In this document: positions 209 through 36,470 of the stretch, piece after piece
How positions within the stretch are numbered: position 1 is the stretch's first letter
How the letters are laid out: every line of letters begins with the position of its first letter
DNA from: Wenzhouxiangella sp. 15190
GTDB taxonomy: Bacteria; Pseudomonadota; Gammaproteobacteria; Xanthomonadales; Wenzhouxiangellaceae
DNA: 36,470 nucleotides
Direction of reading: 5' to 3'
NCBI RefSeq assembly: GCF_003417465.1
Contig: NZ_QVMV01000049.1
Span: 1-36,470 of the forward strand
Translations under genes and position numbers: made by a program
Notes under the pieces: model-generated
What the model was told of the DNA's origin: nothing
What the model saw: the letters and a program-made list of their open reading frames with translations, nothing else
Database searches by the model: none

Positions 209-1261
209 ATGCGCTACCTGCTGCTTACCCTGACTTTCGTGCTCGTCGGCCACGCTTCGGCGACCGGCGAGATCAACGTGCTCACGGACCTGCAATCGCC
301 CTTCCCGCCCGGCTGCGTGGCGGTTTCGCTGCCGCAGGAGTCGGCATCCGCCGAGAACGAGTTGTACGATGAGGACGTATTCATCCCTTCGGTCGAAGAG
401 GACCAGCCGGCCGCCCAGGTGCGCGTGCAGATCTGGCGCACGGGGTGTCACGACGAAGGCTTTTCGGTGGTGATGGTCCGACTGGAAAAAGTCAGCGGCG
501 GGCCCGTTCTGGTTCCCAGAGCTTTCGCCGAGGCCGGGAACGTCGAGCTGCCCGGCCACCAGGCACAATTGATCCGCCATCCCGCCGTCGGCGGCGTGGG
601 GGCGTCCGGCAACGACCTCGTGGGCGCGACGACCTACATGCTCGGCGTCGATCCGTTTCCGCTCAACCCGGACAACGATACAACGTTCGGACCGACCGAA
701 TACAACGATGAATTCACCCTGGAGCTTTTCTGGGGCGACTACGCCCGGACGGACCCGTCGGAGGACTTTCGTCTGTTCACGATCTTCGAGTACGAGCCGC
801 AGATCGACCCGACACAAAAGGACTACCCCATTCTTCACGGCCGCATGTCGGGCCAGTACACGGTCGAGGGCCGACCGTTCAGCGGCGTCGTGCTGCAGAT
901 CGGCGAGGTCTACAACCCGGACGGTCCCGACACCAACTCGGTCTCGGTATTGTTTTTTACCTACATAAATGGTGCGCCCACCTGGGTCATCGGCGCGGAT
1001 TCCAACCTGGAGCCTGGCTTCGATATGGTCACCCTCGACATGCTCGAACTGTCGGGCGGCCAATTCATCACCAGCCCCCCCGGAAGGTATGACGAGGACG
1101 ATGTCACCGATGAATTCATCGGAACCATGACCCTCGAGGCACTGGACTGCAACACACTGCTGATCGGCTACAACTTCAGCGAAAGCGGACTGGGGACCGG
1201 TTCCTTCGAAGCCGAGCGGTTGATCAACCTGGCCGGGTATGCGTGTAATCCTTGGAGGTAA
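209..1261 (+). CDS. Secreted protein of unknown function
   Basis: A 350-residue protein with a clear Sec signal peptide: MRYLLLTLTFVLVGHASA followed by TGEINV. I recognise no family. The mature part is acidic, with few lysines, and contains a cysteine near the N-terminus (PPGCVAVSL), a TGCHDEG stretch, a late LDCNTLL and a C-terminal AGYACNP. Disulfides in the periplasm or outside the cell are therefore possible. An in-frame ATG at 188 would add seven residues ahead of the signal peptide. I prefer 209 because GGAA lies about eight bases upstream and the hydrophobic core then starts at once. The gene faces the hydrolase tail to tail, and a CG-rich hairpin follows its stop codon directly. Confidence 0.75.
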   Translation: MRYLLLTLTFVLVGHASATGEINVLTDLQSPFPPGCVAVSLPQESASAENELYDEDVFIPSVEEDQPAAQVRVQIWRTGCHDEGFSVVMVRLEKVSGGPVLVPRAFAEAGNVELPGHQAQLIRHPAVGGVGASGNDLVGATTYMLGVDPFPLNPDNDTTFGPTEYNDEFTLELFWGDYARTDPSEDFRLFTIFEYEPQIDPTQKDYPILHGRMSGQYTVEGRPFSGVVLQIGEVYNPDGPDTNSVSVLFFTYINGAPTWVIGADSNLEPGFDMVTLDMLELSGGQFITSPPGRYDEDDVTDEFIGTMTLEALDCNTLLIGYNFSESGLGTGSFEAERLINLAGYACNPWR

Positions 1262-1281
1262 CGCGCGCCGCGTGGCGCGCG
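1262..1281. terminator. GC-rich stem-loop right after a stop codon
   Basis: CGCGCGCC at 1262-1269 pairs perfectly with GGCGCGCG at 1274-1281 around the loop GCGT. It begins on the base after the TAA stop of the secreted protein. There is no T-run, so it is not a classical intrinsic terminator. It could stabilise the transcript 3' end, and it borders the AT-rich inverted repeat that follows. Confidence 0.45.
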
Positions 1282-1410
1282 AAATTCGAAGCACGAAGCA
1301 CCAAACTCGAAACAAATCCGAAATTTAAAATCCGAAACTGATCGAAGGCAGCCGTTTCGAATTTCGAGTTTGGTGCTTGTTTCGGATTTGGTGCTTCGGA
1401 TTTCGGATTT
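1282..1410. repeat. AT-rich word-based inverted repeat (locus 1)
   Basis: Arms of 57 bases lie at 1282-1338 and 1354-1410, and the second is an imperfect reverse complement of the first. Both are built from shuffled short words such as AAATCCGAA, GCACCAAA and CTCGAAAC. The 15-base centre is GC-richer. The element fills the gap between two convergent genes and contrasts sharply with the GC-rich surroundings. A long RNA hairpin could form on either strand, with an A-rich 5' arm and a U-rich 3' arm, so bidirectional termination is possible. Related word sets recur at 2.1 and 8.1 kb. Confidence 0.8.
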
Positions 1411-1418
1411 AGGAACCG

Positions 1419-2051
1419 CTACTTCTCGAAACTGCCGGACTGCAGGAATCTTGCGACTGCCCGCGATACCACCGGCGCCATCACCAGACCGGTGTGGGTG
1501 ACCGGCAGGATGCACTCCGCGGCTCCCTCGAGACGGCATTCCGAGACGCTGACGGTACCGTCGTTGGGACCATCCAGGCCGCCAATAATCCGCCCTACCC
1601 CCATCGATCGGCTGCCGGCGATCACGCCGGTCTCGCGGCCGGGAGGGGCGTGGGAGAGGCCGTTGGTCAGCGCCTTCCTCGCCTGTCCGACCAACGGCTT
1701 GAACAGGGGACGACCGGCCACGCGCCGGCCCACGGCCGAGCCCCGGACGGGACTTCCCAGAAGCACGACACGACCCGGCGGCAGGCCGGTGTATTCATCG
1801 AGCATGCGCAGGATGACCAGCCCGCCCAGGGAATGGCCAACCAGGTCGACCTGGTCGAGCGACAGGCCGGCGACGAACTCGCGCAGGGCCTCAGCATTGG
1901 CGCGCAAGGAGCGTTGCATGGTGGGATAGCCGAAGCTGTGGGTTCGAAATCCCGCCCGCTCCAGCCGGCGGGCCACCAGCCTCATGCTCCAGGGACCCCA
2001 CCAGAGGCCGTGGACCAGGACGACGGTTCGGGGGGAGGTTGCCTTATTCAT
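1419..2051 (-). CDS. Alpha/beta hydrolase (lipase/esterase-like)
   Basis: A 210-residue cytoplasmic-looking alpha/beta hydrolase with no signal peptide. An HG oxyanion-hole motif lies near the N-terminus (VVLVHGLWWGPW). The nucleophile elbow is GHSLGG, with the serine near residue 73. The likely acid is the aspartate in GPNDGTVSV and the likely histidine is in PVTHTGLV near the C-terminus. The whole triad is therefore visible and the enzyme is probably active. The short core, without a large lid, resembles PGAP1/triacylglycerol-lipase-like bacterial hydrolases; the substrate cannot be told. It lies downstream of aspS on the same strand, but the inverted repeat at 2096-2243 separates them. Confidence 0.85.
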   Translation of the reverse strand: MNKATSPRTVVLVHGLWWGPWSMRLVARRLERAGFRTHSFGYPTMQRSLRANAEALREFVAGLSLDQVDLVGHSLGGLVILRMLDEYTGLPPGRVVLLGSPVRGSAVGRRVAGRPLFKPLVGQARKALTNGLSHAPPGRETGVIAGSRSMGVGRIIGGLDGPNDGTVSVSECRLEGAAECILPVTHTGLVMAPVVSRAVARFLQSGSFEK

Positions 2052-2095
2052 TGCTTCAGGCCGTCGTCCTTAATGCTCAAGAACCAAGCATGCTC

Positions 2096-2243
2096 AATGA
2101 CCAAGAACCAAATTCCAATTTACAAACAAGGACCAATGATCAATTTTCAATGACCGAAACGAGTTCCAAACGCTGCAGTTTCGATGATTGATTATTCGAT
2201 CATTGAGATTTGTTTGTAAATTGGTGCTTGGTAATTGGTCATT
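2096..2243. repeat. AT-rich word-based inverted repeat (locus 2)
   Basis: Arms of 46 bases at 2096-2141 and 2198-2243 both begin or end with AATGACCAA when read on the appropriate strand, and share the core CCAATTTACAAACAA. They are imperfect reverse complements with no length difference. The outer end overlaps the aspS stop codon: the TGA at 2239-2241 lies inside the right arm. The words (TTGGTGCTTGG, AATTGGTCATT) partly overlap those of loci 1 and 4. Confidence 0.8.
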
Positions 2244-6149: not shown

Positions 6150-6223
6150 GTGTGAAGTGTGAAGTGTAAAGTGTGAAGGAAGTCGCCGTCCCCTCTTCAC
6201 ACTTCACACTGAACACTTCACAC
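6150..6223. repeat. Word-based inverted repeat (locus 3)
   Basis: Arms of 29 bases at 6150-6178 and 6195-6223 are near-perfect reverse complements (about 25 of 29). They consist of repeats of the word GTGTGAA/GTGTAAA. The 16-base centre is GC-richer. It sits between divergent genes (epimerase and ettA), so the promoters of both must lie in or beside it. The design matches loci 1, 2, 4 and 5, but the words are different. Confidence 0.8.
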
Positions 6224-6297
6224 TCGTTGCCGCCTGGCAATCCGCTACACTCGCCCCCACATTCACGCACTCGCAACGAACCGAACGGATTCCGCCG

Positions 6298-10807: not shown

Positions 10808-10933
10808 TGGCTGTGGTCTGTGGTCTGGGCTCTATGTGTCGTTTCGTCGTTTTGTCGTTTCGACTTATTACCGAGTACTGAACATGGACCACAGTGCACG
10901 GGATCCCGGATAACGCCTCCGGCGTTTCCGGGA
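10808..10933. repeat. Composite intergenic repeat (locus 6)
   Basis: Two kinds of repeat meet in the gap between the GT2 and methyltransferase genes. From about 10808, words GTGGTCTGTGGTCTG and TGTCGTTTCGTCGTTTTG are repeated without a matching opposite arm. Then at 10904-10933 a palindrome TCCCGGA...TCCGGGA encloses an inner stem AACGCC/GGCGTT. The CCCGGA/TCCGGG ends are those of the GC-rich repeats in gspI and gspJ. The GTGGTCTGTGG words resemble those in the gspH leader. This is the only interruption in an otherwise overlapping operon. Confidence 0.65.
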
Positions 10934-10938
10934 CGACA

Positions 10939-24031: not shown

Positions 24032-24909
24032 CGGTTCCTCCTCCGGCCGCGATTACCCGGCCTCAGCATGTCGCGAGCGCGCTCGATGGTGCGCGTGCGA
24101 CGTGAATTGCCGCTGTCGACCATGACCGGCGCGACCAGGTCCGGCCAGACCAGGCCGCGGTCGGAATCGAGGTCGAGCATCACGCCCACGGCCAGCGGAA
24201 GGCGATCAGGCTCTTCCCAGAAGTCGGTCCAGAACGTCTCGCCGGTTTCCGGATCGAAGTCGAGGAAAATGAACTCGCCACCGCCAAGGTTTTCCATCAG
24301 GACGCGTCCGTCGGTGGTCTCGCGCAGTGCGCCGTCCTCGTAGCCGTTGAGCATGGCGTAGTAATAAACCAGTTCGAGACCCTCGCTCCCCCGCTCCAGC
24401 CGGAATTCCTGAACGTACGGGCCGCCGTAGCTGAGATAGCCGGGCATGGGCGAGACGAATCGCACCCGCTCACGCTCACCCTCGAACCGCACGGTTTCGC
24501 CGTCCTCGAACTGCTCGATAACGAGCGAGCGCGACCGCATCAGCTGCCGTCGCATGAACTGCTGGACCACACGCAGGCGATTGGTCTGCTCGATGACTTC
24601 CTCGCCGGAGCTGGTCGCGCGCACGCTGGCGCGAAAACCGCCGTAGGCCATGGCCATGATGATCGACACCAGCGCAATCGCCAGCAGCACCTCAATCAGC
24701 GTGAAGCCGCCTTCGCGCATTCGCGAAGGCGTCCCGGACGAGCGAAGCGAAGATCCGGGACCTCCCAGACCATGCCGGCAGGCTGTCCCGGACCCCGATC
24801 CGGGACCTCCTTCAGTTTGCTCCCACCGCCGGCGCGAAGCCGACCCGGAACCCCCGGAACACTGTCGCAACGCACGCTTGTCGCGCTTGAAGAACCGGCC
24901 GATGCTCAC
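24028..24909 (-). CDS. gspJ: Type II secretion minor pseudopilin GspJ with repeat-derived leader
   Basis: A 293-residue prepilin by the start I prefer; the mature part (about 225 residues) begins FTLIEVLLAIALVSIIMAMA with Glu at +5. The start is GTG at 24909: GGGAGGA lies five bases upstream and the codon overlaps the gspI stop as GTGA. It then encodes a basic stretch (SIGRFFKRDKRALRQC), about 45 residues translated from GC-rich repeats (RWEQTEGGPGSGSGT, GGPGSSLRSSGTPSR) and finally MREGG before the cleavage site. The leader would be 68 residues. The alternative ATG at 24720 would give a normal five-residue leader but has no nearby ribosome site. The mature domain has the GspJ pattern (RATSSGEEVIEQTNRLRVV). 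Confidence 0.88.
   Translation of the reverse strand: MSIGRFFKRDKRALRQCSGGSGSASRRRWEQTEGGPGSGSGTACRHGLGGPGSSLRSSGTPSRMREGGFTLIEVLLAIALVSIIMAMAYGGFRASVRATSSGEEVIEQTNRLRVVQQFMRRQLMRSRSLVIEQFEDGETVRFEGERERVRFVSPMPGYLSYGGPYVQEFRLERGSEGLELVYYYAMLNGYEDGALRETTDGRVLMENLGGGEFIFLDFDPETGETFWTDFWEEPDRLPLAVGVMLDLDSDRGLVWPDLVAPVMVDSGNSRRTRTIERARDMLRPGNRGRRRNR
24722..24839. repeat. GC-rich repeat cluster in the gspJ leader
   Basis: Two modules. Module A (24722-24766) is identical over 45 bases to 25444-25488. Module B (24794-24839) matches 25405-25450 at 42 of 46 positions. Between them is a TGTCCCGGACCCCGATCCGGGACC palindrome (quoted as CCCGGA/TCCGGG arms) with a six-base loop. Module A has eight-base arms GTCCCGGA/TCCGGGAC with a 15-base loop. 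On the minus strand GGAGGT precedes each palindrome. The modules are in a different order from those in gspI. Confidence 0.85.
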
Positions 24910-25511
24910 TGTCGTCCTCCCCCGCCCGACTGTCGCTGCCGCTCTTCCCAATAAGTATCCACCGAGCGCAGGGTCTCGAAGGTCGCCTCCCGGCGCCCCT
25001 CGGCCCATTCCACCGTCAGGACAACGTGATAGAGGGCGATGGGCAACTCCTCCTGGAGATCGAGGCCCCGTTCGTCGACGACCTGCGTCTCGCTGACGTC
25101 CATCGTCCAGGTAAATTCGTCATTGAAACGGCCCTGGCTCACCCCGGGTTCGATCATCTGTTCCAGGCCCAGCACATCCAGCTTGGACTGGGCCCACAGG
25201 GCCGCCTGTGTGTAATCACCGGACATGCGTGTATTCCCCACCGAGGTCGAGAGGATCTGCAGCACAACGCCGAACAGCAGGGCAAAAACCATGAACGCGG
25301 CCATCACCTCGATCAACGTAAAGCCACCCTGGCGGCGTAGCCGACAGGGTGTCCCGGACCCCGATCCGGGACCTTCCAGACGGGCCCGCGCACGCGACCC
25401 GAAACCCGATCCGGGACCTCCGTCAGTTTGCCGCCACCGCTGGCGCGAAGGCGTCCCGGACGAGCGAAGCGAAGATCCGGGACCTCCCTGAATCGGCCGA
25501 CGCTCAAGCAT
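24906..25511 (-). CDS. gspI: Type II secretion minor pseudopilin GspI with repeat-derived leader
   Basis: A 201-residue minor pseudopilin. The mature protein begins FTLIEVMAAFMVFALLFGVV (Glu at +5) and continues with the GspI pattern (SKLDVLGLEQMIEPG). Upstream of the GG cleavage site there is no in-frame ATG, GTG or TTG until the ATG at 25511, which has GGGAG seven bases upstream and overlaps the gspH stop by eight bases. The leader is therefore 63 residues. MLERRPIQ comes first, then about 50 residues read from GC-rich repeats (GGPGSSLRSSGTPSR, RWRQTDGGPGSGFGSR, LEGPGSGSGTPCR), then RRQGG. Leaders of this family are usually 5-15 residues. Confidence 0.92.
   Translation of the reverse strand: MLERRPIQGGPGSSLRSSGTPSRQRWRQTDGGPGSGFGSRARARLEGPGSGSGTPCRLRRQGGFTLIEVMAAFMVFALLFGVVLQILSTSVGNTRMSGDYTQAALWAQSKLDVLGLEQMIEPGVSQGRFNDEFTWTMDVSETQVVDERGLDLQEELPIALYHVVLTVEWAEGRREATFETLRSVDTYWEERQRQSGGGGRQ
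24915..24921 (-). promoter_or_regulatory. Ribosome-binding site for the distal gspJ start
   Basis: GGGAGGA on the minus strand at 24921-24915, five bases before the GTG at 24909. It lies at the very end of gspI. It is the only strong site near either candidate gspJ start, apart from the GGAGGT inside the repeats, and supports the long leader. Confidence 0.7.
25340..25488. repeat. GC-rich repeat cluster in the gspI leader
   Basis: Three successive units on the plus strand: a CCCGGA/TCCGGG palindrome with short loop (about 25350-25375), module B (25405-25450) and module A (25444-25488). Module A is identical to the copy in gspJ. All three stay in the gspI reading frame with no stop. The insert length therefore keeps the frame even though the units are clearly repeats rather than gspI sequence. 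Confidence 0.85.
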
Positions 25512-26019
25512 CGTCCGACTCCCGCTTGATGCTGACCTCGCCGGTCAGCCAGGACACTTCCACTTCCCACGTCCGCTCGCCGGCCAGCAATTCCACGCTG
25601 CCGCCGGTCGATGCGCCGTCGGGGTAGAAGCGGATACCGCCGGCATTCTCGCCGGTCAGCTCCGAACGGGCGGTATTGATGGTGATATCCAGGCCTTCGG
25701 GAATCTCGACCGGTTCCCGCTCCGCCGCCGTCCAGGTCTTCGCATCGGCATCGACGTGAAAGACCTGCTGCTGGCGCTGGATGATGGCCTGGCCGCGGGT
25801 GTGCCGGATGCCGGCGACGACTTCGCGCGAGGCGTTACGAATCTCGGCGCCCTCGATCGAGCGGCTGACCGAAACCCCGACCACGGCGAACAACATGGCG
25901 ACGAGCATCATCACCACCATCAGCTCGATCAGCGAAAAACCGTGTTCCGTAGTCTGTGGTCCGTGGTCTGTAACCTGAACCCTGAAACCGGAAACCGGAA
26001 ACCGGAAACCTTTAGTCAA
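25504..26019 (-). CDS. gspH: Type II secretion minor pseudopilin GspH with repeat-derived leader
   Basis: A 171-residue minor pseudopilin. The mature part begins FSLIELMVVMMLVAMLFAVV (Glu at +5) and shows the GspH pattern (ASREVVAGIRHTRGQAIIQRQ). No ATG, GTG or TTG occurs in frame between the cleavage site and the TTG at 26019, which follows the gspG stop by one base. I take this TTG as the start, with a weak GGGA before it. The leader would be 27 residues: MTK, then a stretch read from word repeats (GFRFPVSGFRVQVTDHGPQT), then TEHG. An upstream start within gspG cannot be excluded and would make the leader longer still. Confidence 0.85.
   Translation of the reverse strand: MTKGFRFPVSGFRVQVTDHGPQTTEHGFSLIELMVVMMLVAMLFAVVGVSVSRSIEGAEIRNASREVVAGIRHTRGQAIIQRQQQVFHVDADAKTWTAAEREPVEIPEGLDITINTARSELTGENAGGIRFYPDGASTGGSVELLAGERTWEVEVSWLTGEVSIKRESDDA
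25519..25523 (-). promoter_or_regulatory. Ribosome-binding site for gspI
   Basis: GGGAG on the minus strand at 25523-25519, seven bases before the ATG at 25511, inside the end of gspH. Together with the absence of any later in-frame start, it fixes the start ahead of the repeats. Confidence 0.65.
25945..26012. repeat. Word repeats in the gspH leader
   Basis: On the plus strand, AGTCTGTGGTCCGTGGTCTGT is one block (two copies of a GGTC(T/C)GTGG word), then AACCTGAACCCTGAAACCGG and three copies of GGAAACC. The two blocks are not complementary to each other, so this looks like a half element rather than a hairpin. The GTGGTCTG word also occurs at about 10.81 kb. It is in frame with gspH and contains no stop. 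Confidence 0.75.
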
Positions 26020-26020
26020 C

Positions 26021-26428
26021 TCAATCCCAGCTCTTGATATCGGCGTTCGCGCCTTCACCACCGGGCGAACCGTCTGCGCCATGCGACCAGATATCGAAGG
26101 AGCGATGTTCGCCCGGATAACGATACTGGTAGGCGTTATCCCAGGGATCCTTGAGGTTGGAATCGTTGACGTAAGGGCCGTTCCAGTTGGTAGCATCGCC
26201 AGGCTTTTCGATCAGTTCGCGCAGCTCCTCGGGCGGGCGACCGTTGTCCAGGTAGAACTCGTCAACGGCCATCGACAGACGCTGCACCTCGGCATCGGCG
26301 GCACGAAGCTTGGCATCTTCACCGCGCTGCATGATGTTGGGCACGACCAGGCCGGCGATCAGGCCGAGAATGATGAGCACCACCAGCAGTTCGATCAGGG
26401 AGAAACCTGAATTGGGCGATTTGTACAT
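26021..26428 (-). CDS. gspG: Type II secretion major pseudopilin GspG
   Basis: The 135-residue main subunit of the pseudopilus. The leader MYKSPNSG (eight residues) is cut before FSLIELLVVLIILGLIAGLV with Glu at +5. The globular part contains VDEFYLDNGRPPEELREL and the calcium-loop region near KDPWDNAYQYRYPGEHRSFD, ending SPGGEGANADIKSWD. GGAGG lies nine bases before the ATG at 26428; the open frame upstream is not coding. This normal leader is the internal control for the long leaders of gspH, gspI and gspJ. Prepilin peptidase (GspO/PilD) is not encoded here. Confidence 0.96.
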   Translation of the reverse strand: MYKSPNSGFSLIELLVVLIILGLIAGLVVPNIMQRGEDAKLRAADAEVQRLSMAVDEFYLDNGRPPEELRELIEKPGDATNWNGPYVNDSNLKDPWDNAYQYRYPGEHRSFDIWSHGADGSPGGEGANADIKSWD

Positions 26429-27701: not shown

Positions 27702-27767
27702 CAGATTGCGGTGGCTTCGTTGAGCCTTGTCGAAGGCTGCAGTCGCGGTGCGGGTCGGCGCAGGTTT

Positions 27768-27958
27768 AGAAAATAGAAAATAGAAAAAAGTGAATAGGAA
27801 AAAGAAAATAGAAAATAGACCGGCATTAGAAAGCCGGCAGTCCCGTTTAGCACGGGTGACTTCGACTGCACCACCGGCGCTACCTCGATAGGCATAAATT
27901 GAATTTTTGGGGCGCTCACTGACTGCATCTATTTTCTATTCACTATTTTCTATTTACT
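27768..27958. repeat. AT-rich word-based inverted repeat (locus 5)
   Basis: The left arm (27768-27819) repeats AGAAAATAGAAAATAGA with AGTGAATAGG in the middle. The right arm (27928-27958) is the reverse complement of the same words, ATAGTGAATAGAAAATAG. The arms are unequal in length. The centre is about 108 bases and contains the competing hairpins described separately. As at the other loci, the 5' arm is A-rich and the 3' arm T-rich on both strands. Confidence 0.75.
27820..27878. promoter_or_regulatory. Competing hairpins in the gspE-gspF gap
   Basis: GCCGG at 27833-27837 can pair with CCGGC at 27820-27824 (eight-base loop) or with CCGGC at 27874-27878. In the second fold it closes a longer hairpin: GCAGTC (27837-27842) with GACTGC (27864-27869) and CCCGT (27842-27846) with ACGGG (27852-27856). 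The two folds exclude one another. On the minus strand this would lie in the message between gspE and gspF. It starts with GTAG-CGCCGG on that strand, as do some REP elements. I do not recognise a known riboswitch. Confidence 0.45.

Positions 27959-36189: not shown

Positions 36190-36470
<281 letters not shown>

What the first reader, a model, noticed from the sequence alone, without database searches (positions are those of the whole stretch)
24720..26019. Three adjacent pseudopilin leaders are all repeat-derived: a general tolerance rule?
gspH, gspI and gspJ each carry repeats exactly between start codon and cleavage site, and nowhere in the mature parts. Gene junctions here overlap, so there is no spacer to accept an insertion. 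The leader is the only disposable segment. That suggests selection or targeting: repeats enter junctions, and only in-frame events ahead of a prepilin site survive. Alternatively, long leaders may control insertion or timing of the minor pseudopilins that nucleate the pseudopilus.
Basis: inference. Interest (0 to 1): 0.78.

Follow-up and report, generated by a model that had tools for sequence, protein, structure and literature searches.

The report
Repeat-built leaders on secretion pseudopilins
In a group of Wenzhouxiangella bacteria, short selfish palindromes appear to have become in-frame protein tags on secretion-machine subunits, just ahead of the point where the tag is predicted to be cut off, and these tags have moved between three neighbouring genes; the same palindromes also sit inside ordinary enzymes, so there is no leader-only rule.

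Summary
The repeats are real. In a Wenzhouxiangella T2SS operon the gspI leader (63 codons) contains REP-type palindromes and the gspH leader is built of heptamers; no ATG/GTG/TTG start avoids either. gspJ has two possible starts: a GTG with a good Shine-Dalgarno sequence (68-codon leader through the repeats) and an ATG after them (MREGG|F). Eight of nine genomes in one clade carry REP modules, intact or decayed, before gspH, I or J. The module is a reversed REP plus a covarying hairpin ending three bases before the first mature codon. Module similarity ignores gene identity (36 nt upstream: cross-gene 21.0, same-gene 21.4), while sequence just downstream stays gene-specific (23.8 against 31.4), so leaders have moved between paralogues. 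The 'leader tolerance rule' fails both ways: 0 of 40 other prepilin leaders read in three genomes carry such repeats, and REPs lie in frame inside a TviB-type dehydrogenase, a cyclase-family enzyme and a DnaE2-like protein of the same genome. In-frame intragenic REPs are already published (PMC3733652). Best reading: REP-borne leader cassettes, filtered for frame and roughly neutral because the leader is predicted to be removed. Their movement in register with the prepilin site was not found in my paper searches; its mechanism is not shown.

The parts
25939..26019 (-). gspH leader from TTG 26019 (27 codons); ten consecutive 7-nt units at about 25941-26010 (GGTTTCC x3, GGTTTCA, GGGTTCA, GGTTACA, GACCACG, GACCACA, GACTACG, GAACACG)
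   Evidence: unit count read by eye
25504..25938 (-). mature GspH (XpsH-like, PF12019) after predicted cleavage G|FSLIEL, with stop
25323..25511 (-). gspI leader, 63 codons; ATG 25511 is the only ATG/GTG/TTG in frame; contains three REP palindromes, one degenerate
25453..25483 (-). REP palindrome 1 of gspI leader (GTCCCGGATCTTCGCTTCGCTCGTCCGGGAC)
25397..25418 (-). degenerate REP 2 of gspI leader (3 mismatches to the pattern)
25351..25373 (-). REP 3 of gspI leader (GGTCCCGGATCGGGGTCCGGGAC)
25326..25350 (-). hairpin 2 of gspI (ACCCTGTCGGC TAC GCCGCCAGGGT, one mismatch); its right arm lies in the codons of ..RRQGG and stops 3 nt before the mature F codon
24906..25322 (-). mature GspI (XpsI-like), with stop
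24706..24909 (-). gspJ leader if GTG 24909 is used (68 codons); GGAGG lies 6 nt upstream of the GTG; alternative ATG 24720 gives MREGG|F
24785..24807 (-). REP a of gspJ leader (GGTCCCGGATCGGGGTCCGGGAC)
24731..24761 (-). REP b of gspJ leader; together with hairpin 2 it is 57/60 identical to the module before gspH in relative G024
24709..24730 (-). hairpin 2 of gspJ (GCCTTCGCG AATG CGCGAAGGC), with the alternative ATG in its loop
24028..24705 (-). mature GspJ, with stop
26021..26428 (-). gspG (major pseudopilin); no abutting hairpin before its mature codon (0 of 30 loci)
   Evidence: start as called

Best explanation
REP-type palindromes (gspI, gspJ) and heptamer tandem repeats (gspH) have been incorporated in frame between the start codon and the prepilin cleavage site of three neighbouring minor pseudopilin genes of one T2SS operon. 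Shown from sequence: the repeats, the open frames, recurrence in relatives, sharing of leader modules between gspH, gspI and gspJ regardless of gene, and in-frame REPs inside mature enzymes of the same genome. Inferred: the leaders are translated, the prepilin peptidase removes them, so they are roughly neutral in the mature pseudopilus, and events that break the frame are lost. Also inferred: a module (reversed REP plus hairpin 2) was acquired in an ancestor of one Wenzhouxiangella clade and then spread between the three genes by REP mobility or short-homology recombination at the conserved Gly-Gly|Phe codons, with the mature part kept by selection. Hairpin-2 covariation is as compatible with palindrome correction during replication (recalled mechanism) as with selection.
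For: Palindromes far beyond chance and dispersed genome-wide: 44 forward and 40 reverse matches, largely the same palindromes seen on both strands, 0 in the control. gspI has a single start, upstream of its repeats. Frame 0 is open in 11 of 11 gspI/J leaders counted, +1 in 2, +2 in 6. A hairpin of score 9 or more abuts the mature codon in gspH 5 of 27, gspI 5 of 30, gspJ 3 of 30, gspG 0 of 30; stem changes are compensated at 5 of 11 pairs over 10 sequences. Among 81 distinct REP copies in the loci held then, a following hairpin (score 8 or more) is present in 10 of 12 T2SS copies and 2 of 69 others (recounted). Cross-gene sharing: G009 gspI and G018 gspH 100/126 nt; own gspJ and G024 gspH 57/60; 35 of 56 high-scoring leader pairs join different junctions, best of 3000 shuffled comparisons 33 against a cut of 44. 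Upstream 36 nt: cross-gene mean 21.0, same-gene 21.4, background 12.7; downstream 36 nt: 23.8, 31.4, 23.3. Eight of nine genomes of one clade (support 0.97) carry modules, intact or decayed. In-frame REPs in mature enzymes show that the process is not leader-specific.
Against: No translation or processing data. The gspJ ATG at 24720 may be the true start, making its repeats non-coding; in G003 the heptamers before gspH lie ahead of its only listed start, so there they are probably spacer. 0 of 40 other prepilin leaders carry repeats, so dispensability of a leader alone does not explain why this operon is hit. The exact end of modules at the cleavage site could mean targeted insertion rather than neutral drift. 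REP-leader genomes are related, so the number of independent events is unknown. Several genomes are metagenome assemblies. Only the 30 best-scoring GspI loci, out of 56 genomes with a match, were read.
Confidence: 0.72

Rival explanations
1. The repeats are ordinary extragenic REPs in 5' spacers; translation starts after them and the long open frames are annotation artefacts.
For: gspJ has ATG 24720 (MREGG|F) after the repeats and G024 gspH has a like ATG (MREGG|F). G003 gspH has heptamers ahead of its start. PMC3733652 warns that many NH2-terminal REPs are probably extragenic (section 15 read).
Against: gspI and gspH here, and gspJ of G003, have no ATG/GTG/TTG after the repeats; the gspJ GTG has a better Shine-Dalgarno sequence than the ATG, and an in-frame start at that same -4 place exists in 24 of 30 loci; overlapping starts stay in frame in 11 of 11.
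Confidence: 0.12
2. Targeted insertion: a REP-mobilising activity recognises the DNA around the Gly-Gly|Phe codons and places modules in register with the cleavage site.
For: Modules of three genes and several species end at the same codon; sharing does not reach past the cleavage codon; Y1-type transposase genes exist in the genome.
Against: 0 of 40 other prepilin leaders, many with similar Gly|Phe-Thr/Ser-Leu-Ile-Glu codons, are hit; REP copies outside the T2SS mostly lack hairpin 2 (2 of 69 have one); 2 of the 12 T2SS REPs lie inside leaders without it.
Confidence: 0.15
3. Selected long leaders: the n-region or hairpins tune membrane insertion, translation or timing of the minor pseudopilins.
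For: Leaders kept in most of one clade; hairpin-2 covariation; Arg-rich stretches just before cleavage; whole own gspI and gspJ leaders fold slightly better than shuffles (z -1.73, 11 of 200 shuffles as good; z -1.69, 12 of 200).
Against: Leader length from the junction start ranges from 5 to 68 codons over the loci and relatives with short leaders exist; the folding signal is weak, and partial windows gave z 0.29, -1.74 and 0.68.
Confidence: 0.1
4. The gspH heptamer tract is a phase-variation (contingency) locus: gain or loss of a 7-nt unit shifts the frame and switches gspH off.
For: 7 is not a multiple of 3; a 27-nt perfectly 7-periodic core in the leader; heptamer stretches before gspH also in G003, G005, G013 and G025, with none of 24 nt or more before gspI or gspJ. 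Phase variation by heptanucleotide repeats is recalled for E. coli NeuO; only a listing and an abstract start that calls NeuO phase-variable were seen.
Against: Copies are imperfect; no read-level data; the heptamer family is dispersed elsewhere; in G003 the stretch lies ahead of the start. My parser keeps only open frames, so being in frame in every genome is no test.
Confidence: 0.1
5. Assembly or chance artefact.
For: Draft genome of 55 contigs.
Confidence: 0.02

Closest known systems
CGTC/GTAG-tagged REP elements with intragenic copies (PMC3733652; passages and section 15 read)
   Same: Short palindromes, for the short form an 8-bp stem and 5-nt loop, dispersed, mostly intergenic in what I sampled, some in frame inside genes including DnaE2; inserts up to 82 aa reported there
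   Different: Here joined to a covarying hairpin abutting the prepilin cleavage codon and shared between paralogous leaders; several T2SS copies have an altered CGTC tag
Rickettsia palindromic elements (RPE; seen only as described in PMC3733652)
   Same: Palindromes in frame in functional proteins, including N-termini
   Different: Different organism and sequence; no link to a cleaved leader in what I read
REP units adjoined to unrelated stem-loops in P. putida/P. fluorescens (passage in PMC3733652)
   Same: REP next to a second stem-loop
   Different: Here the second stem-loop's right arm is coding sequence of the leader
T2SS minor pseudopilins GspH/I/J (XpsH/XpsI-like)
   Same: Prepilin motif, mature domains, operon order
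   Different: Leaders of 27, 63 and possibly 68 codons made largely of repeats
Heptanucleotide contingency loci such as neuO (recalled; only listing and abstract start seen)
   Same: 7-nt units near the 5' end of a coding region
   Different: No variation shown; degenerate copies

Membership tests
CGTC-tagged REP | 8-9 bp stem and 4-5 nt loop palindrome, many dispersed copies | tested here: met
   GTCCCGGA-5 nt-TCCGGGAC form; dispersed matches in own genome. Longer-loop forms, including two of the T2SS copies, exceed the 4-5 nt loop
CGTC-tagged REP | CGTC at one end | tested here: inconclusive
   Dispersed own copies mostly read CCGGGACGAC (CGTC on the other strand); own gspJ REP b and gspI REP 1 keep CGTC, other own T2SS copies are altered
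CGTC-tagged REP | mostly intergenic | tested here: met
   54 of 61 non-T2SS palindromes in the own loci examined (a sample around search hits), by a simple codon-usage gene caller
GTAG REP mobilised by RAYT | RAYT gene flanked by the REPs | tested here: inconclusive
   Three Y1_Tnp matches in own genome; stretches around two of them and eight stretches of G016 did not show a REP-flanked transposase; GTAG form seen in G016
T2SS minor pseudopilins | prepilin motif and GspH/I/J family match | tested here: met
   PF07963 over its cut-off for all three; XpsH, XpsI and type II protein J models match with E 1.2e-19 or better but below their equivalog cut-offs
T2SS minor pseudopilins | cleavage by prepilin peptidase | not testable with these tools
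   Motif only
General leader tolerance rule | repeats in other prepilin leaders, absent from mature domains | tested here: not met
   0 of 40 other prepilin leaders; in-frame REPs in TviB-type, cyclase-family and DnaE2-like proteins; Sec and Tat leaders not tested
Phase-variable heptamer locus | copy-number variation changing the frame | not tested
   No read data

The most novel reading that the evidence does not exclude
REP plus hairpin-2 modules are a mobile leader cassette: they insert or recombine in register with the Gly-Gly|Phe codons of pseudopilin genes, bring their own Arg-rich n-region, and so let a selfish palindrome live inside overlapping secretion genes at little cost, moving between paralogues and species.
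Probability: 0.22. Interest if true: 0.75.

Novelty: new variant of a known kind. Interest (0 to 1): 0.52.

Why it matters
It gives a natural, multi-species case in which selfish palindromes become coding sequence in a protein segment that is predicted to be discarded, with paralogues as internal controls. It makes testable how long and how odd a class III leader may be, and whether REP elements can move as in-frame cassettes. It also warns gene callers: starts of these genes cannot be placed from the repeats alone.

Tried and rejected
General prepilin-leader rule: 19 of 19 prepilin matches of the own genome and 30 of the 46 matches of G024 and G018 (those given as loci) were read; outside gspG-J of this operon 0 of 40 carry REPs or heptamers by the motif tests used. 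GspK leaders: no REP module seen; one half-motif was flagged in the own J-K junction. RNA structure: partial windows gave z 0.29, -1.74 and 0.68 (the 150-nt limit cut hairpin 2); whole gspI and gspJ leaders gave -1.73 and -1.69, weak. Hairpin-bridged Shine-Dalgarno for the gspJ ATG: considered, not tested. Gene conversion reaching into the mature part: not seen, downstream similarity equals background. RAYT ownership: not established. Papers: seven searches listed nothing on repeats in pseudopilin leaders; only the listed rows were looked at. PMC3733652 was seen as passages plus section 15, PMC10191384 and PMC7691419 as passages; the original RPE papers were not read. Structure prediction was not run. 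The DnaE2-like insert was judged from the family profile only; relatives were not searched for it. A seventh in-gene palindrome (L082) may be native sequence.
Full report
What is there. The window is contig C30 of a 3.13-Mb draft genome of 55 contigs. On the minus strand lies a T2SS operon. gspH, gspI and gspJ match XpsH, XpsI and type II protein J models, below their equivalog cut-offs, and the N-methylation motif above its cut-off.

The gspH leader is ten heptamers (counted by eye). The gspI leader holds three REP palindromes, one degenerate. The 200 nt between gspI and mature GspJ hold two more. gspI can start only at ATG 25511 among ATG/GTG/TTG, so its repeats must be read if a standard start is used. 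gspH has no standard start after its repeats. gspJ can start at GTG 24909, with GGAGG six bases upstream, or at ATG 24720 after the repeats. I favour the GTG because an in-frame start at that same place (-4) exists in 24 of 30 loci and because G003 gspJ has no other start in the stretch examined.

What the repeats are. The palindromes are a dispersed family: 44 forward and 40 reverse pattern matches, largely the same palindromes seen on both strands, and 0 in the reversed control; a pattern for the short form with up to three mismatches gave 20 and 18, control 1 and 0. Stem changes are compensated (GATC..GTCC against GCTC..GGCC). Most dispersed own copies are followed by GAC, which makes CGTC on the other strand. 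This agrees with the CGTC-tagged REP class of PMC3733652 (passages and section 15 read). In relative G016 a GTAG-tagged form is abundant (49 matches to the module query). The heptamer family is dispersed too: 14 forward and 25 reverse matches, many overlapping, control 1 and 1.

Relatives. Of 61 genomes searched, own included, 56 had a GspI match; the 30 best loci were returned and all were parsed, 25 of them of the genus. Three of the 30 (G020, G004, G007) lacked a parsed gspH. Two or more palindrome halves lie before gspH, gspI or gspJ in G000, G003, G024, G009, G016, G008 and G018; decayed forms are in G029 and, outside the clade, G017. On a tree of the mature proteins eight of nine members of one clade (support 0.97) carry the module in some form; G027 does not. 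Heptamer stretches of 24 nt or more lie before gspH in G000, G003, G005, G013 and G025 and before no gspI or gspJ; in G003 the stretch is ahead of the start.

Anatomy of the module. Directly after the REP comes a second hairpin whose right arm ends about three bases before the first mature codon and lies in codons such as RRQGG or MREGG. A hairpin score of 9 or more abuts the mature codon in 5 of 27 gspH, 5 of 30 gspI, 3 of 30 gspJ and 0 of 30 gspG. Ten equal-length copies show changes on both sides at 5 of 11 pairs; slid controls show 0 or 1; 2 of 500 shuffles reach 5. Among 81 distinct REP copies in the loci held then, 10 of 12 T2SS copies and 2 of 69 others have such a hairpin. The two others are one locus in G000 and a like one in G003. 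Two inner REPs of the own leaders carry only a left arm, as if later modules were placed between them and the gene (inference).

Exchange between genes. Among the best cross-junction matches are G009 gspI with G018 gspH (100/126 nt), own gspJ with G024 gspH (57/60) and own gspI with own gspJ (82/99). Of 56 leader pairs scoring 44 or more, 35 join different junctions; the best of 3000 shuffled comparisons scored 33. In 15 module-bearing genes the 36 nt before the mature codon are as alike across genes (21.0) as within a gene (21.4; background of other genes 12.7), while the 36 nt after it are gene-specific (23.8 across, 31.4 within; background 23.3). So modules moved, and the shared stretch stops at the cleavage codon. 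Neither a conversion tract nor a target preference is proven.

Is it a leader rule? No. All 19 prepilin matches of the own genome and 30 of 46 from G024 and G018 were read; outside gspG-J of this operon 0 of 40 carry the repeats. In the same genome REPs lie in frame in a TviB-type dehydrogenase: about 105 residues have no counterpart in the best PDB relative, and five of six aligned relatives lack most of the stretch; the sixth, G027, has a different repeat there. A cyclase-family protein carries two copies, one of them partial, where its only close relative among 13 genomes searched, G024, has a single copy with one changed base in the stem, also in frame. A DnaE2-like protein carries one as well (profile evidence only). 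REP-tagged DnaE2 is already reported (PMC3733652, section 15). Of 61 non-T2SS palindromes in the own loci examined, 54 were intergenic and 7 in genes, one of which (L082) may be native sequence. This is a sample around search hits, not the whole genome.

Mechanism. Shown: repeats, frames, recurrence, sharing between genes, mature insertions. Inferred: translation, removal by the prepilin peptidase, near neutrality, and loss of frame-breaking events. The frame count (11 of 11 open against 2 and 6) fits this, but the sequences are related. Leader peptides vary in length, end in Gly or Ala and are removed by the prepilin peptidase (PMC10191384, passages). What drives the concentration in this operon is unexplained: either an early module spread by recombination at Gly-Gly|Phe codons, or a mobility preference.

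Verdict. A real and recurrent oddity, a new variant of the known intragenic REP phenomenon. Its general rule is not borne out in this genome; its register with the cleavage site and its movement between paralogues are the interesting part.

Noticed in passing
27767-27819 and 27928-27958: Further heptamer arrays (TAGAAAA x7.6; TCTATTT x4) between gspE and gspF.
   Followed up: no
6150-6178 and 6195-6224: Two heptamer arrays that look like an inverted pair (GTGTGAA / CTTCACA).
   Followed up: no
36393-36470: 15-bp repeat GGAAGCCTTCTTCTT x5.2 running into the contig end, 98% matches.
   Followed up: no
10904-10934: A long-form REP-like palindrome with a variable, self-complementary inner part, one of a family clustered on several contigs.
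   Followed up: partly
L095 (G000:C52), 510-2111 minus strand: TviB-type dehydrogenase with an in-frame REP array and a GTCGTTT-type repeat; relative G027 has a different repeat at the same place.
   Followed up: yes
L079 (G000:C33) and L185 (G024): REP copies in frame in a cyclase-family enzyme in two species, with one more copy in the own genome.
   Followed up: yes
L065 (G000:C19) and L147 (G003): REP followed by a perfect 14-nt palindrome that abuts the end of a gene, the only other REP-hairpin pair of that strength found.
   Followed up: partly
L156-L161, L164 (G016): Inverted pairs of GTAG-tagged REPs about 670-960 bp apart, with no recognisable transposase gene seen between them, possibly a MITE-like unit.
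   Followed up: partly
L108-L110, L114 (G000:C6:186508-187835): A second pseudopilin-like gene cluster without repeats in its leaders.
   Followed up: partly
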